Shown piece by piece: positions 5,509-63,940 of a DNA stretch of 64,000 bases. Origin of the DNA: Lachnospiraceae bacterium AM93-12TA (lineage in GTDB: Bacteria > Bacillota > Clostridia > Lachnospirales > Lachnospiraceae). Location: NCBI GenBank assembly GCA_027698105.1, contig JAQERH010000006.1, positions 34,015-98,014 on the forward strand, given 5' to 3'. The position numbers and the translations under genes are program-made. The first letter of the stretch is position 1. Every line of letters begins with the position of its first letter. Below the pieces are notes generated by a model, which did no database searches, had not been told where the DNA came from, and was given only the letters and a program-made list of their open reading frames with translations.

Positions 5509-5526
5509 GCGGAAAGGATGAACGGA

Positions 5527-6513
5527 ATGAAGATATATTTTGCAGCGGCAGCAGCCGGATTTTGTCTGGATCTGCTGTTTGGAGATCCCTATTGCCTTCC
5601 TCATCCAGTGCGCTGGCTGGGAACCCTGATCGGAAAGTCAGAGAGGTGGATTCGGGAAAGATTTCCGAAAACAGCAGGCGGAGAACTGGCGGGAGGCGGG
5701 GTTCTGGTTCTGTGGATTCTCTTTGCAGCCGGAGGATGCTCCTGGCTCTTTCTGCATCTGGCAGGAAAACTTGGGACGATTCCCTGGTTTCTGACGGCTT
5801 CTGTCATGAATTATTATCTTCTGGCAGCCAGATCCCTGTACAGCGAAAGCATGAAGGTTTACAGGCCTCTTACGGAAGGAAAGACAGAAGAAGCCCGCCG
5901 GGCGGTATCCATGATCGTAGGGCGGGATACAGAGAGACTGGATGAAGAGGGGATTACAAAGGCAGCAGTGGAAACTGTGGCAGAAAATACGTCAGACGGC
6001 GTCATCGCCCCGCTTTTATATCTGTTGATAGGAGGGCCGGTACTGGGATGGATGTATAAGGCGGTCAATACCATGGATTCCATGGTGGGATACAAAAATG
6101 AAGCCTACCTGTATTTTGGCCGTGCGGCAGCGAGACTTGACGATCTGGTCAATCTGATCCCCGCCAGGCTGTCCGCCCTTCTGATGATTGTCTCTGCATT
6201 TCTGATGGGCTTTGACGGATCAGGGGCAGCGAAAATCTGGCTTCGCGACCGGTATAACCATAAAAGTCCCAATTCAGCCCAGACAGAGGCAGTCTGTGCC
6301 GGTGCGCTGGGCATCCAGCTGGCGGGAGATGCCTGGTATTTTGGGACTCTCTGTAAAAAGCCTTTTATTGGAGATAAATTGAGAAAGACAGAGTATCAGG
6401 ATATTCCCAGGGCAGGCAGGCTCATGTACGGAACCACGGTTTTGATGTTCGCTCTTTGGGGGGTGATTCTGGCTGTTTCTAAATTATTTATCATGAATAT
6501 GCAATTTGTTTAA
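5527..6513 (+). CDS. cbiB: Adenosylcobinamide-phosphate synthase CbiB
   Basis: Membrane protein of about 328 residues that attaches aminopropanol (or its phosphate) to adenosylcobyric acid. Its substrate is supplied by CobD, encoded at 22304 beyond the polysaccharide locus. Family blocks are visible: LDLLFGDP with HPVRW near the N-terminus, ENTSDGVIAPLLY in the middle, then NTMDSMVGYKNE and RLDDLVNLIPAR. An ATG at 5518 is only one base from GGAAAGG, while ATG 5527 sits nine bases away, so 5527 is preferred. The last base of the stop codon is the first base of the terminator/recombination-site hairpin that follows. Confidence 0.92.
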   Translation: MKIYFAAAAAGFCLDLLFGDPYCLPHPVRWLGTLIGKSERWIRERFPKTAGGELAGGGVLVLWILFAAGGCSWLFLHLAGKLGTIPWFLTASVMNYYLLAARSLYSESMKVYRPLTEGKTEEARRAVSMIVGRDTERLDEEGITKAAVETVAENTSDGVIAPLLYLLIGGPVLGWMYKAVNTMDSMVGYKNEAYLYFGRAAARLDDLVNLIPARLSALLMIVSAFLMGFDGSGAAKIWLRDRYNHKSPNSAQTEAVCAGALGIQLAGDAWYFGTLCKKPFIGDKLRKTEYQDIPRAGRLMYGTTVLMFALWGVILAVSKLFIMNMQFV

Positions 6514-6559
6514 AGGAAAAAGTGTCGCTTAACTGTATATTAAGCGACACTTTTTCCTT
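6513..6559 (+). terminator. Hairpin terminator of the cobalamin operon, coincident with recombination site
   Basis: Perfect 20-bp arms (6513-6532 and 6540-6559) enclose a 7-base loop CTGTATA. The descending arm contains TTTTT, so it reads as an intrinsic terminator after cbiB. The complementary A-run gives it U-tract character on the minus strand too. The central 29 bp are the left crossover site of invertible cassette 1. Confidence 0.75.
6522..6555 (+). repeat. Left inverted repeat of invertible promoter cassette 1
   Basis: 34 bp that recur exactly as the reverse complement at 6768-6801. The repeat is itself quasi-palindromic: 11-bp arms GTGTCGCTTAA / TTAAGCGACAC around the asymmetric core CTGTATA (6533-6539). 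That 11-7-11 plan matches crossover sites of tyrosine recombinases. Confidence 0.93.
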
Positions 6560-6767
6560 GCATAAAAGACCAAAATTAGAAAGGGATATTTGATGCTAAT
6601 TAGATTTTTTTGATTTCAACAAAAAATTAATAGAATAATAAGAAAATATTAGAAATAAATGGGAAACAGTCTTGTTTCTGCCAATTGACTCTCCCTGTAA
6701 AGGATGTTATAATCTACAGGAACTGACATAATAATGATAGACTTGTAAAGAATTGAATTTTATATAA
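6556..6767. other. Invertible DNA segment 1 (promoter inverton), present in ON orientation
   Basis: 212-bp AT-rich non-coding segment between the two inverted repeats. With the repeats it fills the gap between cbiB and the antiterminator gene. It holds the promoter at 6685-6713 pointing into the polysaccharide operon. A block at 6627-6661 (TTAATAGAATAATAAGAAAA and following bases) closely matches the reverse complement of 51744-51777 in cassette 2. That shows the two segments are homologous and lie in opposite orientations relative to their operons. Confidence 0.85.
6685..6713 (+). promoter_or_regulatory. Sigma-A promoter inside invertible segment 1
   Basis: TTGACT (6685-6690), 17-base spacer, TATAAT (6708-6713). 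Transcription would start near 6720 and cross the right inverted repeat into the loaP gene at 6820. TATAATCTACA is also found at the homologous promoter of cassette 2, on the other strand. Confidence 0.88.
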
Positions 6768-6801
6768 AAAAAGTGTCGCTTAATATACAGTTAAGCGACA
6801 C
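6768..6801 (+). repeat. Right inverted repeat of invertible promoter cassette 1
   Basis: Exact reverse complement of 6522-6555, with core TATACAG (6784-6790). Only 11-bp arms pair here because the outer flank is ACAAATC rather than a T-run, so the hairpin should not terminate transcription coming from the promoter. In RNA it would form an 11-bp stem ending 18 bases before the loaP start codon. Confidence 0.93.
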
Positions 6802-6819: not shown

Positions 6820-7353
6820 ATGGGCTGGTATGTCATACAGTGCAGGCCGGGAGAGGAGGAGCGCCTTATCAGCTCCTGCAAAAGCCGTATTTCCTCAGAT
6901 GCCCTGCAGGAAGCTTTTTTCTTTCGCAGTGAACGTCTCTGGAGAGCAGGGGGAGGAAACTGGAAACGGATTATAAAACCGATGTTTCCTGGATACGTTT
7001 TTCTGCAGAGTGGACGGCCAGAGCTTCTGTTTCAGGAACTGACCCCATACAGGGAGTTTTTGAAGGTGATGGAAGAACCAGGGTATCTGATTTCTCTTTA
7101 TGAGGAAGAGGAAAAAAATCTTCGCAGTCTCTGCGGAGAGAACCATCTGCTGTCTCTGTCCTATGGGTATCGGGAAAATGGAAAAAACTTTATTCTGGAA
7201 GGCCCTTTAAAGGGACGGGAGGAACGGATTCTTCAGGCTGACTGGCACAGGAGATATGCCAGAGTGGAGCTTCCCATTGCCAGACGAAAAACCGTAGTCT
7301 GGGCAGGGCTGGGATTGCCGGGAGACAGGGATCACGCCTGTCTGAAATTTTAA
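6820..7353 (+). CDS. loaP: LoaP/NusG-family transcription antiterminator of exopolysaccharide locus 1
   Basis: 177-residue NusG paralog. The N-terminal NGN domain opens with GWYVIQCRPGEE and carries MFPGYVF near residue 64. The C-terminal KOW-like part has EGPLKGREERI and ARVELPI. Specialised NusG proteins at the head of long polysaccharide operons (LoaP in Firmicutes, UpxY in Bacteroides, RfaH in enterics) ride with RNA polymerase and suppress termination; that role is inferred from position and family. The ATG at 6820 follows AAAGGGGGG. It is about 60% similar by eye to the protein at 51937, and both lie just downstream of an invertible promoter. The symbol follows family usage. Confidence 0.85.
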   Translation: MGWYVIQCRPGEEERLISSCKSRISSDALQEAFFFRSERLWRAGGGNWKRIIKPMFPGYVFLQSGRPELLFQELTPYREFLKVMEEPGYLISLYEEEEKNLRSLCGENHLLSLSYGYRENGKNFILEGPLKGREERILQADWHRRYARVELPIARRKTVVWAGLGLPGDRDHACLKF

Positions 7354-51211: not shown

Positions 51212-51493
51212 TTAAAATTTATGTGCGGACGAGAAAATATAATCTAAAATATCTTCAACAAACACAATATGTTCATATTCTGTCTCATCAATCTGAATAC
51301 CGAATCGTTCTTCTACCTGGGTCAAGAAATAGACCATTAAAAAAGAATCCAGCCCCATATCCTCGATCAGACGCGAAGAAGGAGTGAGGGGGGCAAAAGA
51401 TTCGGCATAGTCTTTGAGTATATCAGAGAACTCATCCAGGCAGCGCTGTCTGGCCTGTTCCATGTCCATTTCGTAGAGTATTTCAGAAACCAT
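51212..51493 (-). CDS. Acyl carrier protein-like
   Basis: 93-residue acyl carrier protein. The phosphopantetheine attachment serine is in the DMGLDSF motif (Ser50), followed by VYFLTQVEERFGIQI and the closing VEDILDYIF helix. It is more divergent than fatty-acid ACP (DSF instead of DSL), so probably a stand-alone carrier for a specialised pathway, unknown here. Start at 51493 has TGGAGG seven bases upstream on the minus strand. A small hairpin (GGGCT/AGCCC) lies in the leader. It faces invertible segment 2, whose promoter presently points at it across a strong terminator-like hairpin. Confidence 0.82.
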   Translation of the reverse strand: MVSEILYEMDMEQARQRCLDEFSDILKDYAESFAPLTPSSRLIEDMGLDSFLMVYFLTQVEERFGIQIDETEYEHIVFVEDILDYIFSSAHKF

Positions 51494-51594
51494 ATATTTG
51501 CCTCCAGTCTTCCGGGCTTTATACAGCCCGATACTCTGATTATACAGAATTTGATAAAAAATGAAAAGGATTTTCAAATCTATGCATAAAGCAT

Positions 51595-51635
51595 AAAAAA
51601 GTGTCGCTTAATAATCTGTTAAGCGACACTTTTTT
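51595..51635. terminator. Bidirectional terminator-like hairpin coincident with left crossover site 2
   Basis: 17-bp perfect arms (51595-51611 and 51619-51635), loop TAATCTG, with six A before and six T after. It reads as stem plus U-tract in both directions. It should stop a transcript from the currently inverted promoter before it reaches the ACP gene. Confidence 0.75.
51603..51633 (+). repeat. Left inverted repeat of invertible promoter cassette 2
   Basis: 31 bp repeated exactly as the reverse complement at 51873-51903. Same arms as cassette 1 (GTCGCTTAA / TTAAGCGAC) but a different 7-bp core, TAATCTG (51612-51618). Confidence 0.92.
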
Positions 51636-51872
51636 GACTATTTATAAGAATGATTCTGTATAATTTTCAAGATTCTTTTAGACTCTTGTAGATTATAGCA
51701 TTCTTTCAAAAGGGAGTCAATTCCTATCAGCAGGTACATATTTCATTTACTTCTAAATTTTTCTTATTTTTTTATTAAAAGTCAGATTTTTTCTATTAAA
51801 TTCCTGTTTTTTGATATTTTCCCAGAACGAAACGTGATACGGCTGGCAGAGCCGAAAATAAGAGTTTCTTAT
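51634..51872. other. Invertible DNA segment 2 (promoter inverton), present in OFF orientation
   Basis: 239-bp AT-rich non-coding segment between the cassette 2 repeats. Its reverse complement matches segment 1 around the promoter and in the block 51744-51777. So relative to its operon it lies the opposite way round to segment 1. It makes up most of the 443-base gap between the ACP and loaP genes. Confidence 0.83.
51692..51720 (-). promoter_or_regulatory. Sigma-A promoter inside invertible segment 2, pointing away from the operon
   Basis: On the minus strand: TTGACT (51720-51715), 17-base spacer, TATAAT (51697-51692), then CTACAAGAG, matching CTACAGGAA after the locus 1 promoter. The -10 lies about 60 bases from the nearer repeat in both cassettes. 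Inversion would point it at loaP (51937). Confidence 0.87.
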
Positions 51873-51903
51873 AAAAGTGTCGCTTAACAGATTATTAAGC
51901 GAC
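51873..51903 (+). repeat. Right inverted repeat of invertible promoter cassette 2
   Basis: Reverse complement of 51603-51633, core CAGATTA (51888-51894). The outer flank reads GTAAAAC instead of ACTTTTT, so the arm is cut to 9 bp of pairing and there is no U-tract toward the operon. Confidence 0.92.
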
Positions 51904-51936
51904 GTAAAACAGCATAAAAAGGAGGGAGTCTGCCCT

Positions 51937-52467
51937 ATGAGCTGGTATATTCTGCAGTGCAGAACCGGGCAGGAAAGAGAAATCATTGCTTCTTTGAAAC
52001 AGCATTTGTCCAGTGAAGCATTATCAAAGGCCTTTTTATTTCAAAGTGAACGTCTGTGGCGGGCCGGAGGCGGAAATTGGAAGCTGATTGAAAAAGATAT
52101 GTTTCCTGGCTACGTATTTATGGAAAGTGAAAATCCAAAGAGGCTGTCAGAGGAACTGGAGCAGTACAGAGGGATTGTCCGGATTATGGAGGATCCAGGA
52201 TATCTGTATTCTGTCTATGAGGAAGAAAAAAAGCGTCTTCTTATGCTGTGCGGAAAGGAACATATATTGCGTCTTTCTTATGGCTATAGAGAAAACGGCG
52301 TAAACTGCCTGTTGGCAGGGCCGTTAAAAGGGATGGAACATCAGATTATAAAGGCAGACTGGCATAGAAGGTTTGCCCAGGTAGAGGTTCCTCTTTCTGG
52401 GAAGAAAACGATAATCTGGGCTGGTTTGGGACTGCCGGAAGAGAGAACACTGTGGAAAGCAGGGTAG
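51937..52467 (+). CDS. loaP: LoaP/NusG-family transcription antiterminator of exopolysaccharide locus 2
   Basis: 176-residue NusG paralog closely similar to the protein at 6820. N-terminal SWYILQCRTGQEREI, SERLWRAGGGNWK (identical in both), MFPGYVF near residue 60, and KOW-like AGPLKGMEHQIIKADWHRRF. Start ATG 51937 lies 11 bases after AGGAGGG; an earlier GTG at 51877 falls inside the crossover site. In the present orientation of segment 2 the gene lacks the usual promoter, so it is probably silent, along with the long operon behind it. Confidence 0.85.
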   Translation: MSWYILQCRTGQEREIIASLKQHLSSEALSKAFLFQSERLWRAGGGNWKLIEKDMFPGYVFMESENPKRLSEELEQYRGIVRIMEDPGYLYSVYEEEKKRLLMLCGKEHILRLSYGYRENGVNCLLAGPLKGMEHQIIKADWHRRFAQVEVPLSGKKTIIWAGLGLPEERTLWKAG

Positions 52468-52865: not shown

Positions 52866-54248
52866 ATGAAAAATTATGAACAGTACAAACGGCTGATGAG
52901 AGGAGTGTTCTGTCTCCTTCTTTTGGCTGTTCAGGCTGGTATGTTTTGGTATGTGTGGAAAAGGGAATACAGCCCTTTAATGGAGAGTCCTTATTGGAGA
53001 AAGGGACACTGGCTGATCGCAGCCATTTATATTCTCCTTATCTTTATTTTTCCTAAAATATACGGCGGATGGAAGGTAGGATATCTGCGAGTGTTCAATC
53101 TGCTGTATTCGCAGTTTTTAGGAACGCTGCTGGCGAATGGAACCATGTACCTTATTATCACGCTGCTGACGAAGCATTTTGAAAATCCGGCGATGATGGG
53201 GCTTATGACACTTTGCCAGACAGCAGCCATGACAGTGTGGGGATTTTTTGCCAACCGGATTTATCAGAAGGCTTATCCACCCAGAAAAGTGCTGATGGTA
53301 TATGGAGAACGTCCGGCAGCAGGCCTCTTGCAGAAGCTCCATACCAGAGAAGATCGCTTTGAAATCGGGGAAATGGTACATATTTCAGAGGGAGTTCAGA
53401 AGATAGAAGCTTTGATCGGAGACAAAATCAAAGGCTATGGGGGCGTTGTCATCTGCGATATTCCCAGCAGGGAACGGAATCAGATTTTAAAATACTGCTA
53501 CGGAAAAGGGGTCAGAACCTACACCACCCCTAAAATTTCAGATGTCATTATCAGAAGCGCAGAGAGTCTTCATATGTTCGATACACCTCTTCTTATGTCG
53601 CGAAATACAGGGCTGACGGTAGAGCAGAGGGCCGTTAAACGAGCTGTGGATATCATTATTTCCCTGATTGCCTTTATTCCAGCTGCCCCGATTATGGCGC
53701 TTGTAGCCCTGTGCATTAAGCTGGACGATGGCGGAAGTGTGTTTTATAAACAGAAACGTCTGACCGAAGGAGGAAAGGAATTTTTCGTCTATAAATTCCG
53801 CAGCATGAGAGAGGATGCGGAAAAGGATGGTGTGGCCCGGCTGGCAGGGGAAAATGATGACCGCATTACACGGGTGGGCCATGTGATACGAACCATCCGC
53901 TTCGACGAACTGCCTCAGCTGATTAATATTCTGAGGGGAGATATGAGCATTGTTGGCCCCAGACCAGAACGGCCTGAAATCGCTAAAGATTATGAAAAGG
54001 AAATACCAGAGTTCACCTATCGCCTGAAGGCAAAAGCAGGGCTTACCGGTTACGCACAGGTATACGGTAAATACAACACCACGGCCTACGACAAGCTGAA
54101 ACTGGATCTGATGTATATCCAGAATTACAGCCTGCGCCTGGACTTTGAAATCATGTTCAAAACGGTACAGATCCTGTTTATGAAGGAAAGTACGGAAGGA
54201 GTGGAAGAAGGACAGGTGACGGCGATGGATGTAAAACGAGAAGATTAA
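52866..54248 (+). CDS. Undecaprenyl-phosphate sugar phosphotransferase (initiating glycosyltransferase), locus 2
   Basis: 460-residue paralog of the enzyme at 8449, same domain plan: several N-terminal membrane spans (residues ~12-130), middle domain, and C-terminal PglC-like catalytic core with KFRSMREDAEKDG, TIRFDELPQLINI, SIVGPRPERPE and GLTGYAQVYGKYNTTAYDKL. It would transfer a sugar 1-phosphate to undecaprenyl phosphate. Last gene of the GC-richer locus head; the AT-rich variable part begins with the next gene. Confidence 0.9.
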   Translation: MKNYEQYKRLMRGVFCLLLLAVQAGMFWYVWKREYSPLMESPYWRKGHWLIAAIYILLIFIFPKIYGGWKVGYLRVFNLLYSQFLGTLLANGTMYLIITLLTKHFENPAMMGLMTLCQTAAMTVWGFFANRIYQKAYPPRKVLMVYGERPAAGLLQKLHTREDRFEIGEMVHISEGVQKIEALIGDKIKGYGGVVICDIPSRERNQILKYCYGKGVRTYTTPKISDVIIRSAESLHMFDTPLLMSRNTGLTVEQRAVKRAVDIIISLIAFIPAAPIMALVALCIKLDDGGSVFYKQKRLTEGGKEFFVYKFRSMREDAEKDGVARLAGENDDRITRVGHVIRTIRFDELPQLINILRGDMSIVGPRPERPEIAKDYEKEIPEFTYRLKAKAGLTGYAQVYGKYNTTAYDKLKLDLMYIQNYSLRLDFEIMFKTVQILFMKESTEGVEEGQVTAMDVKRED

Positions 54249-54263
54249 AAGGATGTAAGTTTC

Positions 54264-55484
54264 ATGAAAATTGTGGAATTTGACTATAGGAAAAATGAAT
54301 GTGGAAACCAAAAAAAATGTGTTCTTCTTTTACCGCGCCCTATTTTTCCCTTGATCAGTGGATATTCCAATAAAAATTACAATTTAATTGCAGGACTATC
54401 TAAGAAATACAATTTGTTTTTAATTGTGCTGTCTCAGCGAGAACTTTTATCTGAAGAGATAGAGTATTATAAAACTACGGTTTGTCATACAACATTAATT
54501 GTTATGCCCAAAATAGAAAATATATTTGGAGCGTTAAGAACTGTTCCTACATTAGTTCCTCTTCAGGTTGGATATTATTATAAAAAGAAAATCCAGAAAA
54601 TTGTTGATGTGAAAATAAAAGATGCAGATATAGTAATTGGCGCTTTAATAAGAACAATAAAATACTTAGATAGTGTTTCTAACAAATGTATTAAAATTTT
54701 TGATATGGTTGATTCTATTGGATTAAATTATTCACATTCAGCGGGGCAGTCCACATCATGGTTTTGGAAGATGGTGTATAGAATTGAAGGAAAGCGACTT
54801 ATTCGTTATGAAATCGAAAAGATAGGTAGTTCTGACTGCACTTTTTTTGTAAATAAAAATGAAGAGAACTATTATAGTCAATATGGAAAAACAGTTTGGA
54901 TTCCTCATGGAGTAAAAGAAGAATTATTTAACTACCAACAATCAGATAAAACTTATCAAAATTGTGTAGCATTTATCGGAAAAATGGATTATCAACCTAA
55001 TATTGATGCAGTGAAATGGTATGCCGAGTCGGTACATAGTAAACTAGGGAAAACAGTACCTTTTATTATAGTAGGAGCGAATCCTGCTCCTGAAATAGTA
55101 AATTTGCAAAAAAGATATCCCAATATTAAAGTAACTGGATTTTGCGAGGATCCTTATCTGTATTTAAATTCAGCTATGGCGATAGTAGCTCCAATGCAGA
55201 CTGGCGGCGGTATTCAGAATAAAGTTCTGGAGGGAATGGCTCTGGGAAAAATTAATATTATTTCAACTTTAGCAGCTAGACCAATTATAGGAGCAGAAGA
55301 TGGAAAACATTTTCTGATTGCGGATACAGCAGGAGAGTATTGTGAATTAATTGAAAAAATTATTGGCAATCGAGAGCAGTATGCTCAGATTGGAAGAAAT
55401 GCCAGAGAGTTTATAAAGAAAAATTATACATGGGAAGCGTACATAAGGATATATTTGAAAACGCTAGAAGAATGCGAGGAATAG
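54264..55484 (+). CDS. Family 4 glycosyltransferase
   Basis: 406-residue GT-B enzyme. N-terminal acceptor-side domain starts LLLPRPIFPLISGYSNKNYN; the C-terminal donor domain has VAFIGKMDYQPNIDAVKWY, the VTGFCEDPYLYLNSAMAIV strand and GGGIQNKVLEGMALG, a GT4 pattern close to TIGR03087/PslH-type proteins. Strongly AT-rich compared with the preceding gene. Specificity unknown. Confidence 0.85.
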   Translation: MKIVEFDYRKNECGNQKKCVLLLPRPIFPLISGYSNKNYNLIAGLSKKYNLFLIVLSQRELLSEEIEYYKTTVCHTTLIVMPKIENIFGALRTVPTLVPLQVGYYYKKKIQKIVDVKIKDADIVIGALIRTIKYLDSVSNKCIKIFDMVDSIGLNYSHSAGQSTSWFWKMVYRIEGKRLIRYEIEKIGSSDCTFFVNKNEENYYSQYGKTVWIPHGVKEELFNYQQSDKTYQNCVAFIGKMDYQPNIDAVKWYAESVHSKLGKTVPFIIVGANPAPEIVNLQKRYPNIKVTGFCEDPYLYLNSAMAIVAPMQTGGGIQNKVLEGMALGKINIISTLAARPIIGAEDGKHFLIADTAGEYCELIEKIIGNREQYAQIGRNAREFIKKNYTWEAYIRIYLKTLEECEE

Positions 55485-55515
55485 AATAGAAAAAAGAGAA
55501 AGAAGAGATAAGACG

Positions 55516-56277
55516 ATGGAATATCAAATAGAGTATATTCATGAAAAATTGTTTGAGATGATGACAGTTTTTGATAGTTTTTGTAAAGAAAATCATTTGG
55601 AATATTATTTAATCGGAGGTTCTGCACTTGGTGCTTTAAGGCACAATGGATTCATTCCGTGGGATGATGATGTGGATGTTGCATTAAAACGGAAAGATTT
55701 TGAGAAAATGGAGGACATTTTGAAAAATCAGATGGGAAATCACTTAGGAAGAACATTTGCATATGTTCCGACTGAACACAATGGGCCTACAGGACATTTG
55801 TATTATTATTTCAAGGATGTGAAACAAAAAGAAAAATGGATTGCAATTGACATATATCCCTTAGATAATGTTCCCTCTTCTATATTAGCACAAGAAGTCC
55901 AAAGAATATTTTGTCAGGTATATCATCTAGCCACCTATCGTATGCCACCTAAAAATAGAGGCAGGTTAATGCGAGTAGGGAGTCAATTGGTATTAAAATG
56001 TTCGACTAAAGCTTTTTTGGACAGGATTGAAAGCATGTCAAAGAAGATTATTACCTATTGGAATAGTAAAAATACACAAATGATCAGTAATCTGTTTGGA
56101 ATAGCTGGGTATAAAAAAGAAATGGTTCCTAATATTTATTTTGGAAATTCTATCCCGCATAAATTTGAAACAGGAGTATTTCCAATTCCAGAAAGAAGTC
56201 ACGAATATATGCAACATATTTATGGAAACTATATGGAACTGCCACCAATAGAGAAGCGTGTACCCAAACATTTATAA
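55516..56277 (+). CDS. LicD-family phosphotransferase
   Basis: 253-residue LicD/FKTN-type protein. The nucleotidyltransferase-like core is visible in YYLIGGSALGALRHNGFIPWDDDVDVALKR, with the acidic metal site in DDDVD, and WIAIDIYPLDNV later. LicD proteins transfer phosphocholine or a polyol phosphate from a CDP carrier onto glycans. The cytidylyltransferase, reductase and epimerase genes that follow favour a polyol phosphate (inference). Confidence 0.87.
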   Translation: MEYQIEYIHEKLFEMMTVFDSFCKENHLEYYLIGGSALGALRHNGFIPWDDDVDVALKRKDFEKMEDILKNQMGNHLGRTFAYVPTEHNGPTGHLYYYFKDVKQKEKWIAIDIYPLDNVPSSILAQEVQRIFCQVYHLATYRMPPKNRGRLMRVGSQLVLKCSTKAFLDRIESMSKKIITYWNSKNTQMISNLFGIAGYKKEMVPNIYFGNSIPHKFETGVFPIPERSHEYMQHIYGNYMELPPIEKRVPKHL

Positions 56278-56299
56278 TAATCAAATAGTAGGAGAGGAA

Positions 56300-57022
56300 A
56301 TGATGAACTATCTCATTTTTTTGGCAGGTGGCATCGGAAGCCGTATGAAATCTTTAGATTGTCCTAAACAATATTTACTGGTGGATGAAAAACCAATTTT
56401 TTTATATTCGTTAGAGACTTTCGAAAAGAGCGGAGATATCAATGGAATTATTATTGTTGCACATAAAGAATGGAGAGAATTTATTTCTAAGTGGATCAAA
56501 AAAGCAGATATTAAAAAATTTATTACATTTGCTGATGCAGGTGAAGCTAGGCAAAGTTCTATTTATAATGGATTAAAATTATTAAAAAAACTAGCAAAAC
56601 AAGAAGATAATGTTATTATTCATGATGCTGCAAGGCCATTAGTTTCGGGAAAACTCATACATAATTGTCTGCGACAGCTTGATAAATACGATGGTGTCAT
56701 GCCTGTACTTCCTGCAAAAGATACTTTTTATCAAAGTGCAAATGGAAAAAATATAGGAGGTTTGTTACCTAGAGAACATTTGTTTGCTGGTCAGGCACCA
56801 GAAAGCTTCAAAATGGTTCCATATATGTTAATTCATGAAGAAAAAACAGATGATGAAATTAACAAAATGACTGGCAGTACTGAAATTGCATATAAAGCAG
56901 GATTAACAATAAAAATGATTCCAGGAGAAGAACAAAACTTTAAAATTACAACTGAAGAAGATATAAGATTGTTTAAAATATATTTGCAGGGAGAAAGAGT
57001 GAAAAATAAATTACTGGTTTAG
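56300..57022 (+). CDS. IspD/TarI-like cytidylyltransferase
   Basis: 240-residue CTP-dependent nucleotidyltransferase. N-terminal LIFLAGGIGSRMKSLDCPKQYL binds CTP; VIIHDAARPLVS and FAGQAPESFKM are the family's substrate blocks; TDDEINKMTGS follows. TarI and Bcs1-type members make CDP-ribitol or related CDP-polyols from the polyol 5-phosphate. Start ATG 56300 or 56303, both close to AGGAGAGG; an earlier GTG would overlap licD. Followed by the structured non-coding stretch. Confidence 0.85.
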   Translation: MMNYLIFLAGGIGSRMKSLDCPKQYLLVDEKPIFLYSLETFEKSGDINGIIIVAHKEWREFISKWIKKADIKKFITFADAGEARQSSIYNGLKLLKKLAKQEDNVIIHDAARPLVSGKLIHNCLRQLDKYDGVMPVLPAKDTFYQSANGKNIGGLLPREHLFAGQAPESFKMVPYMLIHEEKTDDEINKMTGSTEIAYKAGLTIKMIPGEEQNFKITTEEDIRLFKIYLQGERVKNKLLV

Positions 57023-57350
57023 AAAGATTTAATCAAACACAAATAGGGAGTCTTTCGGCTCCCCCAAAAATATTTTAGGAACAGCGACAGTGACTGTCAT
57101 CCTGCGACTGAATAAACATGGTTTATTACCAATGATAAGAGTCCGGGCTCAAAGTCCCACTTGTTTCTGCTTGAAAGGATGACGGCACATATAAATTATA
57201 CGGGGTCGAAATAGATTCGCCACTCCTCCTTCCGTGCTCTGTAGTGTATTGCTATTCCCTACAAGAATTATAAATCAAAGAGTGGAGGGGCACAATATTT
57301 TTTCATAACTTGTTTGTGCCTTGAGCGAAGCGAAAGGAATGATAAGAAAT
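57023..57350 (+). other. Structured non-coding stretch in mid-operon, possible ncRNA or non-autonomous mobile element
   Basis: 328 bases with no gene but many complementary arms: GGGAG/CTCCC at 57046-57063, GACAG/CTGTC (57085-57098), GTCATCC/GGATGAC (57096-57102 with 57177-57183), AATAAAC-ATG-GTTTATT (57111-57127), CGAA/TTCG (57207-57219), CCACTC/GAGTGG (57220-57225 with 57280-57285), TGTAG/CTACA (57240-57263) and GGCACAA/TTGTGCC (57289-57295 with 57314-57320). The last is followed by CCTTGAGCGAAGCGAAAGG, a small stem with tandem G-A pairs. No Rfam family was recognised with certainty. It could be a HEARO/omega-RNA-like or IS200/IS605-derived element, or an operon-internal antitermination RNA. 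Confidence 0.5.
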
Positions 57351-58394
57351 ATGAAAGCATTAGTGCTAAAAGAAATAGGGAAATTGGTTTTAGAAAAAAA
57401 AGAGAAACCAAAGCCTAAAGACAATGAGGTATTGATAAAAGTTATTGCTTCTGGAATTTGTAATAGTGATATTGATCGAGTTTTCAAAACGGGAACTTAT
57501 CATTTCCCAACAATTCCAGGTCATGAATTTTCAGGAATCATAGTAGAAACGGGAAAAAATGTAGATACGAGATATTTGAATAAAAGGGTTGTGATCTTTC
57601 CATTGCAACCTTGCATGGAGTGCGTCTATTGTAGAAATGAAGAGTATGCGCGCTGTGAAAATTATAATTATTTTGGTTCGAGATGTGATGGAGGTTTTGC
57701 TGAGTATATTGCAGTACCTATTTGGAATGTGGTTTGCTTTTCTGAAAATTTATCTTTCGAAGAAGCGGCAATGTGTGAACCGGCTTCAGTAGCTCTTCAC
57801 GGAATTCAGAGAGCAAATATAAAAAAGGGAGAATCTGTATTGATACAAGGCTCTGGAACAATTGGGCTGCTTACAGGACTTTGGTTAAAAAATTTAGGAC
57901 TTAGAAATTTGATTTTTGCTGTGAGAAATACCTACAAAAAGAATCTTCTTATGAAATTGGGTTTTACTTCTGTTATAAATTTAGAGATGGAAACTGAATT
58001 AGAAGGGCTCAAACGTTTAGGCATTAATGAAGACGTTGATGTGGCATTTGATTGTGTTGGAAGTGTACAAGCGGTTTCTTCCTGCATACAGTTTGTAAAA
58101 AAAGGAGGACGAATTCTTCTTTTTGGAAATCCTATAGAAGATATTATTTTACCAAGGAACATTTATTGGAAAATTCTTCGCAATGAACTTTCTATAATTG
58201 GGAGCTGGAATTCATCGTACAATTCTATAGAAAATAATTGGAAAACAACCATAGAAGCAATGGAAGAAAGAAAGTTACAAGTAACTCCATTAATTACACA
58301 TAGATTTAGCCTCGAAGAATCAGAATCGGCATTTCATATTTTAAAAGATAAAGTAGAGCCGGCAATTAAGATTATGTTTATAATGAAAGGATAA
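57351..58394 (+). CDS. Zinc-dependent medium-chain alcohol dehydrogenase, probable pentulose-5-phosphate reductase
   Basis: 347-residue MDR dehydrogenase. Catalytic zinc ligands: SGICNSDIDR (Cys), PGHEFSG (His-Glu). Structural zinc ligands lie in PCMECVYCRNEEYARC. The NAD(P) loop is IQGSGTIGLLTG. Between a TarI-like cytidylyltransferase and a ribulose-phosphate epimerase it most plausibly reduces a pentulose 5-phosphate to a pentitol phosphate, as TarJ does; galactitol-1-phosphate dehydrogenase-like activity cannot be excluded. Start ATG 57351; AAAGGA lies 13 bases upstream at the edge of the structured element. Confidence 0.82.
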   Translation: MKALVLKEIGKLVLEKKEKPKPKDNEVLIKVIASGICNSDIDRVFKTGTYHFPTIPGHEFSGIIVETGKNVDTRYLNKRVVIFPLQPCMECVYCRNEEYARCENYNYFGSRCDGGFAEYIAVPIWNVVCFSENLSFEEAAMCEPASVALHGIQRANIKKGESVLIQGSGTIGLLTGLWLKNLGLRNLIFAVRNTYKKNLLMKLGFTSVINLEMETELEGLKRLGINEDVDVAFDCVGSVQAVSSCIQFVKKGGRILLFGNPIEDIILPRNIYWKILRNELSIIGSWNSSYNSIENNWKTTIEAMEERKLQVTPLITHRFSLEESESAFHILKDKVEPAIKIMFIMKG

Positions 58395-58397
58395 TTT

Positions 58398-59075
58398 ATG
58401 GAATATAAAAAGAAGGGAAAAATATCAGTTTCTATGATGTGTGAAGATTTGGTACACTTGAAAGAGGATATTTTGCTTTTTGAAAAAATGGGAATAGAAT
58501 ATTTGCATATTGATGTGATGGATGGAAAATTTGTTCCTAATTATGGATTGGGAACTGACTATATAAGAGGATTGCGCGAGTTAACCAATATTCCTTTGGA
58601 TTTGCATTTAATGATTGAAAGTCCGGAAGAAAAACTTAAGTGGTTTCATATTCAGCCTACAGATTTGGTAACATTGCACTACGAAAGTACTCCTCATATA
58701 CAAAGAGCTTTAGAGAAAGCTAAACAGTATGGATGTAAAGTAAATTTAGCGATTAATCCAGGTACACCTATTTGTTTCGTAGAAGAACTGTTAGATGATA
58801 TTGATGGAGTTACTATGCTAACAGTTAATCCTGGATTTGCAGGACAAAAAATAGTAAAAAACTCTTTTGAAAAAATGAAAAAATTAAATCAGTATTTAGA
58901 AAAAAGAGGATACCAAGATATGGAAGTGGAAGTGGATGGAAATGTTAGTTTCGAGAATGCAGAAAAACTACATTCCCTCGGAGCAACGATTTTTGTCGCT
59001 GGGACAAGTAGTGTATTCAAAGATGATCGTGAACTGAGACACAATATTTTCAAGTTAAGAGAAAGTATTTCTTAA
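58398..59075 (+). CDS. rpe: Ribulose-phosphate 3-epimerase
   Basis: 225-residue TIM-barrel epimerase interconverting ribulose- and xylulose-5-phosphate. Motifs SVSMMCEDLVHLKED, HIDVMDGKFVPNYGLG, DLHLMIESPEE, NPGTP, TVNPGFAGQKIV and EVDGNVSFEN are characteristic. Its presence in the polysaccharide operon, three bases after the dehydrogenase, suggests the polyol precursor is made from the pentulose pool, perhaps xylulose-5-phosphate. AT-rich, so this is a dedicated copy rather than the housekeeping one. Confidence 0.9.
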   Translation: MEYKKKGKISVSMMCEDLVHLKEDILLFEKMGIEYLHIDVMDGKFVPNYGLGTDYIRGLRELTNIPLDLHLMIESPEEKLKWFHIQPTDLVTLHYESTPHIQRALEKAKQYGCKVNLAINPGTPICFVEELLDDIDGVTMLTVNPGFAGQKIVKNSFEKMKKLNQYLEKRGYQDMEVEVDGNVSFENAEKLHSLGATIFVAGTSSVFKDDRELRHNIFKLRESIS

Positions 59076-59117
59076 GACTGTTCAAGAAAAAAAGAAATTA
59101 TTGGTGAGGATATGGGT

Positions 59118-60170
59118 ATGAATCCTGTAATTAGTATAGTAATGCCAGTGTATAATTCGGAAAAATTTATTCAACAGACTATAGACAGTATAATACGGCA
59201 GTCATTTTCCGATTGGGAATTGATATTAATTGACGACGGCTCCGATGATAAAAGTGGAACAATTTGTGATATGTATGCGGCTAAAGAGCCAAGAATAACC
59301 GTATTGCATCAAAAAAACTGTGGCATTACAAAAACTAGAAATTTAGGACTTTCTAAGGCCAAAGGAAAATATATTGCATTTGCTGATGATGATGATTATT
59401 GTGATGAGAATTGGCTGAAAATTAATTATAAATATATCAAAGAATATAAAGCAGATTTTGTTAAATGTGGTGCGATACAAAAAATATATGATGAAGCTGG
59501 AAATGAGTCAAACATTATTTACAGAACGATAGACAAGTTTGTTGTTTTGGAAGAAGAGGATTTTTTCAACCAATATTACTACCTAAAACAGTCTTTGATT
59601 TTAAATACTATTTGGAATGGCCTATATAGTATAGAATTTTTAAACAACAATAAAATTTCTTTTGATGAAAGTATGAAATGGGGATCAGATGATCAATTGT
59701 TTAATTTGGATATATATAAGAAAGCAAAAAAGGGAGTTATAATTCCTGATACTTACTATACGTGGATGCAAAGAAAAAAACATAGTAAATCTAAAGAATA
59801 TAACTTAAATCGATTAGATGAATACTATAGATTATATTTATCAGAAATTGCTCTTTTGAATAAGATATTTCCCGATACAATAAAAGAGAGGTTTTGGTGC
59901 ATTCGAGTCATGCAATATATAACACATAGTATTTTTGAAATTTCTTCTTTAAATAAAGCTTTGCTTTGGAAAGAAAAAAAGGAAGCTCTAAAAAAACTAT
60001 ATAAATATCCTGTTTTAAAAAAGAAGTATTTTAATTCAGTATTCCAAAATTTGCTTAAAGAAAAACCTCTATTTGCATTAGTTCTTTTATTGATGCACTT
60101 TGATTTGTGGAGAACTACATTGCTATTTTCAACTATCTATTTGCGCATAATAGATATTATAAAGAGGTAA
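59118..60170 (+). CDS. Family 2 glycosyltransferase
   Basis: 350-residue GT2 enzyme: SIVMPVYNSEKFIQQTIDSI, LIDDGSDDKSG, GITKTRNLGLSKAKGKYI and the metal-binding FADDDDYCDENW near residue 92; MKWGSDDQLFNLD is the acceptor-site acid motif. A helical, basic C-terminus (to residue 350) probably associates with the membrane. ATG 59118 is 7 bases from GGTGAGGA; ATG 59112 is too close to it. Specificity unknown. Confidence 0.85.
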   Translation: MNPVISIVMPVYNSEKFIQQTIDSIIRQSFSDWELILIDDGSDDKSGTICDMYAAKEPRITVLHQKNCGITKTRNLGLSKAKGKYIAFADDDDYCDENWLKINYKYIKEYKADFVKCGAIQKIYDEAGNESNIIYRTIDKFVVLEEEDFFNQYYYLKQSLILNTIWNGLYSIEFLNNNKISFDESMKWGSDDQLFNLDIYKKAKKGVIIPDTYYTWMQRKKHSKSKEYNLNRLDEYYRLYLSEIALLNKIFPDTIKERFWCIRVMQYITHSIFEISSLNKALLWKEKKEALKKLYKYPVLKKKYFNSVFQNLLKEKPLFALVLLLMHFDLWRTTLLFSTIYLRIIDIIKR

Positions 60171-60176
60171 CAATAT

Positions 60177-61163
60177 ATGGTTAGTATAATAATTCCTGTT
60201 TACAATGCAGAAAAATATTTGGCTGAATGTGTAGATTCAGTATTAGCACAAACATATAGAAATATTGAAGTAATATTAGTAAATGATGGTTCTAATGATT
60301 CTACCAAAACAATTTGTGATGCTTATCTAAAAGTAGATGATCGAGTGAAAGTATTTCATCAGAAAAATAAAGGTGTGAGCAGTGCAAGAAATGTAGGGAT
60401 AGATAATTCACGTGGAGAATATATTACATTTATTGATGCTGATGATGTCGTAGATAAAAAATTTATAGAGAAACAACTGCTATGTATTCAATTTACAAAA
60501 GCAGACATTTGTATGAGTGAATATTTAATAACACTAACACCATTATCAGTTACTGGAAAAAATCATGAATTAAATTACATATGCTATTCAGCCAAAGATA
60601 TTTTGAAGGATGTACTCAATAAAAAAATATCTAATGTAGGGGCAACTACAAAGTTGATTCACAGATCGTTGATTGATGATTTGAGATTTCAAGAGGATAT
60701 TTTCATAGCAGAAGATATGTTATTTACAATTCAATTATTAGGAAAAGCACAGAAAGTAGTTTATCTTCCGGAAAGTTTATATTTCTACCGCCAAAATATC
60801 GAGGAGAGTACAACTAAAAGAAATTTCACTAAAAAAGTTAACACATTATTTTTGGCATATGATAGGATGCAAAAGATATTATCAACAGTAGATGTAGAAC
60901 TGATATCTGCATTAGAAAATCACAGATATAGAATTAGCTTTCATGTAATTAATTTGATGATTTTGTTAGGGATTCCATTTTGCGATAAAACATTTCAAAC
61001 TGTTTATTGTGAAATAAAGTGCAATCGACGTAGAATTTTAAAAGATCCAGTATTATCTTTGAAAGCAAAGATGGGCATCATTATACTGGTTAACTCAGAA
61101 AAAAAATACAGAAAAATAAAACTGTTTTTAACCAAAAAAAGAAGGAATAGATGCAATAGGTGA
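60177..61163 (+). CDS. Family 2 glycosyltransferase
   Basis: 328-residue GT2 enzyme: SIIIPVYNAEKYLAECVDSV, LVNDGSNDST, GVSSARNVGIDNSRGEYI and FIDADDVVD near residue 86; FIAEDMLFTIQLL supplies the acceptor-site motif. AGAGGTAA precedes the ATG, six bases after the previous stop. Distinct from the upstream GT2 in its C-terminal half. AT-rich. Confidence 0.85.
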   Translation: MVSIIIPVYNAEKYLAECVDSVLAQTYRNIEVILVNDGSNDSTKTICDAYLKVDDRVKVFHQKNKGVSSARNVGIDNSRGEYITFIDADDVVDKKFIEKQLLCIQFTKADICMSEYLITLTPLSVTGKNHELNYICYSAKDILKDVLNKKISNVGATTKLIHRSLIDDLRFQEDIFIAEDMLFTIQLLGKAQKVVYLPESLYFYRQNIEESTTKRNFTKKVNTLFLAYDRMQKILSTVDVELISALENHRYRISFHVINLMILLGIPFCDKTFQTVYCEIKCNRRRILKDPVLSLKAKMGIIILVNSEKKYRKIKLFLTKKRRNRCNR

Positions 61164-61201
61164 TTTCTGGTTTTGAAACATTGCGATTTTAGGGAAATGG
61201 A

Positions 61202-62395
61202 ATGAGATATTATTTGATAAAAAAAGAAAAAAATTATGATTTATACATTTATATTTGTTTGTTTTTCTTTTTGCCTGTTACTTATATGGAAAGGATATTG
61301 GAGTCAACTATTTTTTTTCCAATAGGAAGAGTATTATTATGTACTTGTTCATTTATTTTATATTTTTTTCGTGGAAAAATATCGTTGAATCTTATTTTTA
61401 TTTTCTTTTTTTCCTGTATGATGAATATTAGTACATTTTTTTATGGAGGTTCAATTGCGTCAGCAGTATACGGACATTTTTATCTATTATTGGGAATTTG
61501 TTGTTTTGTAGAATACCATTTAGAAAAGTCACAGCTGTTAATATTATATTATAGATATTGCTTTTTTTGGATTGTTTTAAATTTATTTTCAATTGTCATA
61601 TGGCCTAGCGGAATGTTTATAGCCCCTGGAGATGGAGGAGAAGGGATTAATTTTTTACTAGGCAATTATAATTCATTTATCAAATTTATTTTGCCCGCTT
61701 TAGGAATTGGATATTTTTTGCTGGATCAAAAGAAAATATCTAAAAGACAATATTTTTTCTTGTGGATGTGTGTTATAGTAACATACTCTTTAGTTAATTC
61801 GGTAACTTCAAAAATAGGAGTACTAATTTTCGGGATTTTTTTATTATTATTTAATAGACATATTTTTTCGTGGGGAGTTAATCCGATATTTTCAGTTTGT
61901 ATTATGACAAGCATGACATCTGTATTTGCACTATTTCCAGTAAAGAGTTTGCAGACAAAATTAGCAGAAATTACCGGAAAAAGTGTCACGTTTTCCGGGA
62001 GAACTCTTCTGTGGGAGCGGATGGTAAATGAAATAAAAAATTCTCCTATATTGGGTCACGGGATCCAAAACGGTGAATTTCTAATGGAAAAATTTCAACT
62101 TCAGTATGCTGGGGAAGCCCACAATTTGATTATACAAATATTATATCAAAATGGAATAGTTGGAATTTTGTTATTCTTATTTATCTTTTTTTCGATATCT
62201 TATTGCTTTTTTAGAAAAACAGATGGGAAGACAAAGAGAGCTCTTAAATGTGTTTTGTTGGTTATGTTAGTGATGTCATGCTTCGATTTTTATTCATATA
62301 TTTGGATGTTTCAGATGTTTTTGATTATTTCTTATTGCATGAAACAGAGTAACTTAAATAAATTATCTAATACAATGAATAAGGTAACTAGATAA
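61202..62395 (+). CDS. Wzy-like polysaccharide polymerase
   Basis: 397-residue membrane protein with about ten to twelve hydrophobic helices, no sequence motif beyond the family pattern. An extracellular segment near residues 255-300 (KSVTFSGRTLLWERMVNEIK, HGIQNGEF, EAHNLIIQILYQNG) is typical of O-antigen polymerases and ligases. With the Wzx gene that follows it points to Wzx/Wzy-dependent assembly for locus 2. Confidence 0.82.
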   Translation: MRYYLIKKEKNYDLYIYICLFFFLPVTYMERILESTIFFPIGRVLLCTCSFILYFFRGKISLNLIFIFFFSCMMNISTFFYGGSIASAVYGHFYLLLGICCFVEYHLEKSQLLILYYRYCFFWIVLNLFSIVIWPSGMFIAPGDGGEGINFLLGNYNSFIKFILPALGIGYFLLDQKKISKRQYFFLWMCVIVTYSLVNSVTSKIGVLIFGIFLLLFNRHIFSWGVNPIFSVCIMTSMTSVFALFPVKSLQTKLAEITGKSVTFSGRTLLWERMVNEIKNSPILGHGIQNGEFLMEKFQLQYAGEAHNLIIQILYQNGIVGILLFLFIFFSISYCFFRKTDGKTKRALKCVLLVMLVMSCFDFYSYIWMFQMFLIISYCMKQSNLNKLSNTMNKVTR

Positions 62396-62422
62396 AATAG
62401 TTTAGAAAAATAGAGGGAATAC

Positions 62423-63940
62423 TTGAGAACAAAATATACTATTTATAATTCTATAGCTAGTTTAATTTTTTATTTTATAACCATTATTATTGGGTTAGTA
62501 AATCGTAAATGTTTGATTACACTATTGGGTATCGAATATCAGGGTATCAACGGACTTTTCAGTAATGTTTTATCTATGTTGTCCATTGCTGAATTGGGAA
62601 TTGGAATTACGATTATTTATCATTTGTATCGGCCCTTGGCGGAACATGATACTCAAATGACAAAATGTTTGATGGCATTTTATAAAAAATGCTACAATGT
62701 GATTGCTTTAGTCGTAGCAGGATGTGGTCTTTTGTTTATTCCTTTTTTACCATACTTTGTACCGGATTATAGCCTGCCACAGAGCTTGAATCAAATTTAT
62801 ATTTGGTTTTTGCTGGACTCTGTATGTTCTTATCTATTTACATACAAGCGCTCTATTCTTATTGCTGATCAGAAAAACTATATTGTTACATTTTGCGATA
62901 TTTTATATCAGCTTACTTCCAAATTGGGGCAAGTTGCTGTTCTCCTGGTTACAGAAAATTTTATTTTATATCTAATAACTATGGTTATTTGCCGTTTGGC
63001 AGAAAATTTTCTTTTAAACTTTCTGGTGCTGTGGAAGTATCCGTTTTTAAAAGAAAAGACAGAGGACAAACTTCCGGCCTATATTTTAGAAGATATTAAG
63101 AAGAAAGTAAAGGGAACTATTTTTCACAAAATGGGGAGCTTTTTTGTATTAGGTGTTGATAATATCTTGATTTCTAGATTTTTTGGCCTTGCAGTTGTTG
63201 GTATTTATTCTAACTACCAGCTTATTATTAATACTTTGAAAAATGTTGCTGTTCAATTTGTAACTGCTGCTACTGCCGGTGTGGGACATCTTTTGGTAGA
63301 AAAAGATGAAGAAAAGAACTACGGTATTTTTTGTCAGCTTCAACTTGTGAATGCTGGAATTATGAATTTTTCGGCTTCGGGATTGTTTTGCGTGGTAACT
63401 CCACTAATACAATTTATATTTGGAGAAGAACTTGTTTTTTCGGATATAGTTGTTTTTTCATTAGCGGTTAAATTTTACATTACTGGTATGAGACAAGTTT
63501 ATGCAGTATTTAAAGAAGCGGCTGGAATTTTATACGAAGATAGATTTATACCACTCATAGAATCTGCGCTTAATGTAGTAGCTTCTTTAGTATGTTTGCA
63601 TTTTTTTGGCGTTATAGGAGTGTTTATCGGAACAATTATAAGTTCTTTTGCACTATTTGGTTATACCTATCCAGTTTTGGTTTATAAAGGTCTATTAAAA
63701 CGAACGATAAAAGAGTATAGTATTAATTTGCTTCATCTTACTGCAATAGCAGTTTTAAGTATGATAGTTTCTTACCTGTTTGTAAATACTTTCTACATAG
63801 ACACTCTTTTTATAAGAATCATTTTTAATTGTCTAGTATGCTGTATCATACCAAATTTTCTTTTTTATCTGCTGTATGCACGTAGAAAATTAGAATGGCA
63901 AGAGCTTCTTACCAGAATACAAAAAAGAATAACCCGTTAA
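62423..63940 (+). CDS. Wzx-type oligosaccharide flippase (MOP superfamily)
   Basis: 505-residue membrane protein with about twelve to fourteen helices. It moves lipid-linked repeat units across the membrane. The N-terminal segment IYNSIASLIFYFITIIIGLV with LGIEYQGINGLFSNVLSML is typical of Firmicute Wzx-like proteins. TTG start at 62423 follows GAGGGA. The window ends 60 bases after the stop, so further locus 2 genes may follow. Confidence 0.86.
   Translation: MRTKYTIYNSIASLIFYFITIIIGLVNRKCLITLLGIEYQGINGLFSNVLSMLSIAELGIGITIIYHLYRPLAEHDTQMTKCLMAFYKKCYNVIALVVAGCGLLFIPFLPYFVPDYSLPQSLNQIYIWFLLDSVCSYLFTYKRSILIADQKNYIVTFCDILYQLTSKLGQVAVLLVTENFILYLITMVICRLAENFLLNFLVLWKYPFLKEKTEDKLPAYILEDIKKKVKGTIFHKMGSFFVLGVDNILISRFFGLAVVGIYSNYQLIINTLKNVAVQFVTAATAGVGHLLVEKDEEKNYGIFCQLQLVNAGIMNFSASGLFCVVTPLIQFIFGEELVFSDIVVFSLAVKFYITGMRQVYAVFKEAAGILYEDRFIPLIESALNVVASLVCLHFFGVIGVFIGTIISSFALFGYTYPVLVYKGLLKRTIKEYSINLLHLTAIAVLSMIVSYLFVNTFYIDTLFIRIIFNCLVCCIIPNFLFYLLYARRKLEWQELLTRIQKRITR

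What the first reader, a model, noticed from the sequence alone, without database searches (positions are those of the whole stretch)
51595..51936. Phase-variable promoter cassette 2, in OFF orientation, heads exopolysaccharide locus 2
Seen: 31-bp inverted repeats (51603-51633, 51873-51903) flank 239 bp. The homolog of the locus 1 promoter lies on the minus strand (51720-51692), about 60 bases from the left repeat, with the same bases CTACA after the -10. The match to segment 1 extends 35 bases upstream of the promoter, so the opposite orientation is not a chance motif. Inference: locus 2 was silent in the cell that was sequenced.
Basis: partly seen in the sequence, partly recalled or inferred. 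Interest (0 to 1): 0.9.

Follow-up and report, generated by a model that had tools for sequence, protein, structure and literature searches.

The report
Flippable promoter before polysaccharide genes
A gut-type bacterium carries a short DNA segment with a promoter that can be flipped toward or away from a surface-sugar gene cluster; here it points away, in a relative it points toward, and it belongs to a large set of such switches built on one recombination-site design.

Summary

Inversion is supported by comparison. A related genome (G014) has the same locus on both flanks, but its interior aligns only to the reverse complement of the window's, so its promoter faces the LoaP-like gene.

Each repeat is a palindromic GTGTCGCTTAA-N7-TTAAGCGACAC site. 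In 45 of 45 distinct cassettes the 7-nt core is identical at both ends, yet only 30 of 990 cassette pairs share a core: what a tyrosine recombinase would leave. A candidate acting in trans is present in 12 of 12 genomes with paired sites and 0 of 6 without.

The far site is an exact hairpin in 38 of 38 cassettes, mostly with a T-run; the near site is usually weakened.

'Silent' is likely but unproven: a weaker plus-strand TTGACT-19-TATAAT lies at 51634-51664, and there were no reads or RNA. Invertible promoters are known; LoaP pairing, cassette-specific cores and terminator-like far sites make this a new variant.

The parts
51601..51629 (.). Far (distal) recombination site, GTGTCGCTTAA-TAATCTG-TTAAGCGACAC; with its A- and T-runs (51594-51636) also terminator-like on both strands
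   Evidence: fold -24.2 kcal/mol on the minus strand
51877..51905 (.). Near (proximal) recombination site, same arms, core CAGATTA (reverse complement of the far core); outer arm ends GCGACGT, no outward T-run
   Evidence: fold -16.4 kcal/mol on the plus strand
51603..51903 (.). Invertible segment between and including the 31-nt repeats
   Evidence: inverted orientation at the orthologous locus of G014
51692..51720 (-). Main promoter TTGACT-17-TATAAT, facing away from the LoaP-like gene
51634..51664 (+). Second, weaker promoter-like match TTGACT-19-TATAAT facing the LoaP-like gene; function unknown, possibly chance
   Evidence: 28 of 2000 dinucleotide shuffles have a match this good (spacer 15-20)
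51937..52467 (+). LoaP-like NusG paralogue (176 aa), first gene of locus 2
   Evidence: NF033641 120 bits, cut-off 125; NusG domain; 60% identical to the one of locus 1
52866..63940 (+). Polysaccharide genes of locus 2: sugar transferase, glycosyltransferases, LicD, IspD-like, dehydrogenase, epimerase, Wzy_C; last ORF (62423-63940) without a Pfam match
51212..51493 (-). Acyl-carrier-protein-like gene on the far side, reading away; a similar gene is at the same place in G014 (59% over 63 aa)
6522..6801 (.). Homologous cassette 1 (34-nt repeats, cores CTGTATA/TATACAG), promoter 6685-6713 facing LoaP-like gene 6820-7353

Best explanation
This is an invertible-promoter switch. A tyrosine recombinase encoded elsewhere in the genome binds the 9-11-bp arms shared by all cassettes and exchanges strands within the 7-bp core, which must match, so it pairs the two ends of one cassette and flips the promoter toward or away from a LoaP-like antiterminator that then carries RNA polymerase through the long polysaccharide operon. 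The far site also acts as a terminator: in the present orientation the promoter's transcript ends there, and in the other it runs through the weakened near site into the LoaP-like gene. Shown: anatomy, opposite orientation at an orthologous locus, core identity, asymmetry of the two sites. Inferred: the recombinase, switching within a strain, transcription, termination and antitermination.
For: Orthologous locus of G014 inverted between matching flanks (score 107 to the reverse complement, 18 forward; orthology). Core identical at both ends in 45 of 45 cassettes, shared by 30 of 990 cassette pairs; between ends, arms differ at 52 of 810 positions, cores at 0 of 315. 44 of 45 cassettes hold a promoter-like match of 11-12 of 12; of 38 with a located LoaP-like gene, 4 face it and 34 face away. 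Far site exact in 38 of 38, near site not in 31; outward T-run of 4 or more at 33 of 38 far and 10 of 38 near sites. Recombinase B in 12 of 12 genomes with paired sites, 0 of 6 without, and best two of 397 are the two site-bearing genomes, one being the query's own.
Against: No read-level or RNA evidence. No recombinase is in the window (tblastn of the fetched candidates against the whole window empty) and no genome is held for it. Recombinase B was picked after the fact among several shared families from a partial sample; at a looser threshold its relatives occur in 94 of 397 genomes, and the third-best, G404 (44% identity against 50% for G279), has no site. G279 has sites and B but no LoaP-like match. 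For cassette 1 the terminator scan did not flag the far site, only the near one on the minus strand, although it folds well (-30.6 kcal/mol). 10 of 38 near sites do have a T-run. A plus-strand promoter-like match may keep locus 2 active.
Confidence: 0.85

Rival explanations
1. A two-way switch: when facing away, the promoter expresses the acyl-carrier-protein-like gene at 51493-51212, so the cassette chooses between two outputs instead of on and off.
For: The gene reads away from the cassette, and G014 has a similar gene in the same place.
Against: The far site between promoter and gene scores as a terminator on the minus strand. The gene was not found by tblastn in the 54 loci, and in cassette 1 the far-side gene (5518-6513, plus strand) would only be read antisense.
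Confidence: 0.1
2. Inversion is real but is carried out by another enzyme, for example the tandem tyrosine recombinases (group A), a Xer protein or a serine recombinase.
For: Group A occurs in 9 of the 10 scanned genomes with the sites and in G014; Xer-like proteins are in all ten.
Against: Group A is absent from G002, which has 20 sites, and present in five genus-mates without sites and in 36 of 397 genomes of which only one has sites. A 7-bp core between palindromic arms fits tyrosine, not serine, recombinases (recalled).
Confidence: 0.25
3. The repeats are only terminators or a static structure, and the different orientation reflects old rearrangement.
For: The far site looks like a terminator. 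Exact matches also occur singly in unrelated bacteria (L004, L005, L009, L013, L026).
Against: Terminators do not explain cores that are equal within and different between cassettes, nor an inverted interior between matching flanks. None of those five single sites has a partner within 600 bases.
Confidence: 0.05

Closest known systems
Bacteroides capsule loci with invertible promoters ahead of UpxY antiterminators
   Same: Invertible promoters near antiterminator genes of the NusG kind and polysaccharide genes (PMC11892184, passages)
   Different: There UpxY and, as I recall, the serine recombinase Mpi; here LoaP-like proteins, palindromic 11-7-11 sites and a candidate tyrosine recombinase; the UpxY model scores 25 bits against a cut-off of 100
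Clostridioides difficile RecV switches
   Same: A recombinase inverts several regulatory segments in a Clostridia genome (starts of abstracts)
   Different: Different targets (flagella, CmrRST and others); site architecture and relation of RecV to recombinase B were not compared
LoaP antiterminator (Bacillus velezensis and others)
   Same: Best family of the first gene of both loci
   Different: Both proteins fall below the curated cut-off (120 and 111 bits, cut-off 125); no invertible promoter is linked to LoaP in the papers found (0 papers)
Eggerthella lenta capsule inversions (preprint PMC13174815)
   Same: Site-specific inversion rewires capsule loci and LoaP (passages)
   Different: Megabase inversions at a 16-bp repeat GATAAGCGCGGTTATG; here promoter-sized cassettes with other sites
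Inverton groups 139 and 125 of the hCom2 community
   Same: New inverted-repeat motifs mainly from Firmicutes_A (PMC11892184, passages)
   Different: The motifs are in supplements that could not be read, so overlap with this site is unknown

Membership tests
Invertible promoter (phase-variable switch) | Inverted repeats flank a promoter next to a regulated gene | tested here: met
Invertible promoter (phase-variable switch) | Both orientations of the same locus exist | tested here: met
   Between two related genomes; not within one strain
Invertible promoter (phase-variable switch) | Expression follows orientation | not testable with these tools
   No RNA data; plus-strand promoter-like match noted
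Tyrosine-recombinase site | Palindromic arms around a 6-8-bp asymmetric core (definition recalled) | tested here: met
   11-7-11
Tyrosine-recombinase site | Cores of partner sites match | tested here: met
   45 of 45 cassettes, 0 of 315 core positions differ
Tyrosine-recombinase site | A cognate recombinase in the same genome | tested here: inconclusive
   No genome held for the window; candidate B in relatives
LoaP | Curated model NF033641, 125 bits | tested here: not met
   120 and 111 bits, best family for both; hence 'LoaP-like'
Bacteroides UpxY capsule switch | UpxY antiterminator (NF033644, 100 bits) | tested here: not met
   25 bits for locus 2, not listed for locus 1
Rho-independent terminator (far site) | GC-containing hairpin followed by a T-run | tested here: inconclusive
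   Cassette 2: flagged on both strands. Cassette 1: far site not flagged, though it folds at -30.6 kcal/mol. T-run of 4 or more at 33 of 38 far sites

The most novel reading that the evidence does not exclude
One tyrosine recombinase, encoded in a polysaccharide cluster and often beside a chain-length-determinant-like gene, flips many unlinked LoaP cassettes per genome (up to 8 paired ones counted in one genome here). The cassettes share arms but carry their own 7-bp cores, a natural counterpart of orthogonal lox sites, and each far site doubles as terminator of the outgoing transcript. Related species have exchanged the arms, and presumably the recombinase, as a unit.
Probability: 0.5. Interest if true: 0.78.

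Novelty: new variant of a known kind. Interest (0 to 1): 0.62.

Why it matters
Capsule switching by many invertible promoters is well known in Bacteroides. This shows a parallel arrangement in Clostridia of the C. symbiosum and Hungatella kind, with a candidate recombinase, on/off orientation readable from sequence (4 facing, 34 away), and a site design that predicts which ends can recombine with which. It makes surface-sugar switching in these bacteria directly testable and offers a naturally varied set of cores for one enzyme.

Tried and rejected
Group A tandem recombinases as the inverter: profile speaks against them. Active avoidance of shared cores within a genome: no support (4 of 96 pairs within, 26 of 894 between genomes). 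Exact sites in viral contigs: 0. Inverted repeats of 15 nt or more beside recombinase genes: one unrelated pair in 19 loci. Literature: LoaP + invertible + promoter, 0 papers; invertible promoters + tyrosine recombinase + Lachnospiraceae, 0; symbiosum + inverton, 0; Clostridium symbiosum + phase variation + capsul, 1 review, not read. These cover open-licence PMC papers only; supplements could not be read.

Rows dropped before counts: the scan gave 54 stretches. 42 gave distinct cassettes. 12 had only unpaired sites: L004, L005, L009, L013, L026 (unrelated taxa), L046 (a Clostridia MAG), L011, L027, L042 (contig ends), L016, L018, and L035, whose core-matched partner is 1.5 kb away. One search also lists L055 and L102 as unpaired. 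Two window cassettes and one from L074 make 45. Seven of the 45 (L010, L014, L023, L029, L043, L049, L051) had no LoaP-like gene located and are not among the 38 oriented ones. The scan demanded one exact site per stretch, so cassettes with two altered sites are missed; which of the two ends was exact was not imposed. Recombinases were fetched for comparison only in part. In one search only up to 5 candidates per genome were scored.

Full report
Observation. Aligning the interiors of cassettes 1 and 2 gives 68 for the reverse complement, 18 for the forward strand and at most 38 in 2000 mononucleotide shuffles. The four sites are the only ones in the window and none is expected by chance.

What the repeats are. 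Each repeat contains GTGTCGCTTAA-N7-TTAAGCGACAC (the near site of cassette 2 ends in GT instead of AC), a palindrome with an asymmetric 7-base middle: CTGTATA/TATACAG in cassette 1, TAATCTG/CAGATTA in cassette 2. A scan of genome contigs for GTCGCTTAA-N7-TTAAGCGAC gave 54 stretches: 48 in ten genomes (titles Hungatella, Clostridium symbiosum, C. transplantifaecale, Clostridiaceae bacterium, Bacterium 1XD21-70 and uncultured bacteria), five in unrelated taxa and one in a Clostridia MAG. None of those last six has a partner within 600 bases. Whole-genome counts with up to 2 mismatches are 17, 20, 18, 4, 4, 13, 4, 8, 4 and 7 for the ten, and 1 for the MAG; the backwards control is 0 in all eleven.

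Core rule. With the window's two and one from G014 there are 45 distinct cassettes, 157-284 bp from site to site. The core is identical at both ends in 45 of 45; two different cassettes share a core in 30 of 990 pairs. Pairing did not require equal cores. Between the ends of a cassette the arms differ at 52 of 810 positions, the cores at 0 of 315. This is what a tyrosine recombinase that needs a matching overlap would leave (knowledge of that enzyme class, recalled). Sharing within a genome (4 of 96 pairs) is not rarer than between genomes (26 of 894), so cores vary but there is no sign of selection against sharing.

Inversion. G014, listed in the genus of C. transplantifaecale's genome, has the orthologous locus: M20 peptidase upstream (75% over 120 aa), LoaP-like gene 73%, sugar transferase 77-80% over the parts held, and an ACP-like gene on the far side, 59% over 63 aa. 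Both flanks align in place, but the interior scores 107 to the reverse complement of the window's and 18 to the forward strand. The cassette has thus been inverted since the lineages parted. The cores differ between the two species (CTAACAG/CTGTTAG in G014) yet match within each, so both ends changed together.

State. 44 of 45 cassettes hold a promoter-like match of 11 or 12 of 12 (the exception is L010). Of 38 with a located LoaP-like gene, 4 face it (L033, L048, L074, window cassette 1) and 34, this one included, face away. After reflection, the -10 of cassette 2 would lie 122 bases before the start codon, against 106 in cassette 1. Caveat: TTGACT-19-TATAAT on the plus strand at 51634-51664 faces the LoaP-like gene. 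28 of 2000 dinucleotide shuffles have a match that good (spacer 15-20), and one other away-facing cassette (L001, spacer 15) has one. I do not see it in the printed G014 sequence (by eye). A 19-bp spacer is poor (recalled), but silence is not proven.

Terminator design. The far site is exact in 38 of 38 cassettes; in 31 the near one is not, the reverse never occurs, and 37 of 42 near-site mismatches lie in its outer arm. The outward T-run is 4 or longer at 33 of 38 far and 10 of 38 near sites. Median fold energy of the outgoing strand is -23.5 against -13.4 kcal/mol. I infer that the far site ends the outgoing transcript and the near site lets the incoming one pass. Against this: the terminator scan flagged the far site in cassette 2 but not in cassette 1. 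Related cassettes are not independent, so p-values overstate.

Recombinase. None is in the window: no integrase domain in the ORFs scanned, and tblastn of the candidate recombinases against the whole window is empty. No genome is held for it. Among tyrosine recombinases of relatives, sampled in part, three clusters were widely shared. One of them (B, about 317-330 aa) is present at E 1e-60 in 12 of 12 genomes with paired sites (G001-G010, G014, G279) and 0 of 6 without (G011, G012, G013, G015, G016, G017). In 397 genomes of the family of G007 the two best matches are the two genomes with sites, one of them the query's own. The next, G404, is not far behind (44% against 50% identity), and relatives at E 1e-40 occur in 94 of 397, so the boundary is not sharp. 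B carries an integrase domain; the solved chains that align over most of it are named Int protein (6emy and others). In L226 and L191 it sits among polysaccharide genes. In 8 of 10 loci compared a homologous gene follows it, which in L191 weakly matches chain-length determinants (22.7 bits, cut-off 25.5) and in L226 and L228 has no Pfam match.

Sister systems. The five genus-mates without these sites have LoaP-like genes. In loci of four of them (G013, G015, G016, G017) these lie beside repeats with other arms, TTCGTAGAA-N7-TTCTACGAA or TACAACATAA-N6-TTATGTTGTA, and the cores match within the pairs listed, 11 of 11 and 5 of 5. The first type (up to 3 mismatches) counts 7, 27, 27, 13 and 5 in G012, G013, G015, G016 and G017 (backwards control 1, 4, 2, 0, 1) and 0-3 in the other 13 genomes (control 0-7), that is, not above background. 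In G012 and G002 a recombinase 29-36% identical to B lies between two such sites. This supports the view that this enzyme family works on sites of this design.

Literature. Invertible promoters near UpxY antiterminators and exopolysaccharide genes are known in Bacteroidota (PMC11892184, passages), and C. difficile RecV inverts regulatory switches (starts of abstracts). No paper joining LoaP with invertible promoters was found. Catalogues of invertons may already list some of these segments; I could not read their supplements.

Noticed in passing
L260:2880-4290 (G012); L262:1785-3285 (G002): A tyrosine recombinase gene (384 and 387 aa) lies between two inverted sites of the TTCGTAGAA/TTCGCAGAA type with equal 7-nt cores, so the recombinase itself may sit on an invertible segment.
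   Followed up: partly
L229-L258 (G012-G017): LoaP-like genes of genus-mates lie beside repeats with two other arm types, TTCGTAGAA-N7-TTCTACGAA and TACAACATAA-N6-TTATGTTGTA, again with equal cores within pairs.
   Followed up: partly
L259:2389-3927 (G002): Two sites with matching cores ATGCCCC/GGGGCAT lie 1.5 kb apart and enclose a 290-aa ORF instead of a promoter-sized segment.
   Followed up: no
L261:3379-3770 (G279): A paired site (core TGTTGTA) in a genome with a recombinase B relative but no LoaP-like match; what it controls was not examined.
   Followed up: no
window 55516-59075: LicD, IspD-like cytidylyltransferase, dehydrogenase and epimerase genes in a row suggest a polyol-phosphate-decorated polysaccharide (reading of the set is mine).
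   Followed up: no
L001, L002, L003, L006, L007, L025, L048 and others: Many relatives have two LoaP-like genes in tandem after the cassette, whereas each window locus shows one.
   Followed up: no
L011, L017, L023, L027, L042, L043, L051: Contigs end within about 140 bases of a site in these seven loci, perhaps because palindromes or mixed orientations break assembly.
   Followed up: no
window 51634-51664: Plus-strand TTGACT-19-TATAAT inside the cassette, facing the LoaP-like gene in the present orientation.
   Followed up: partly
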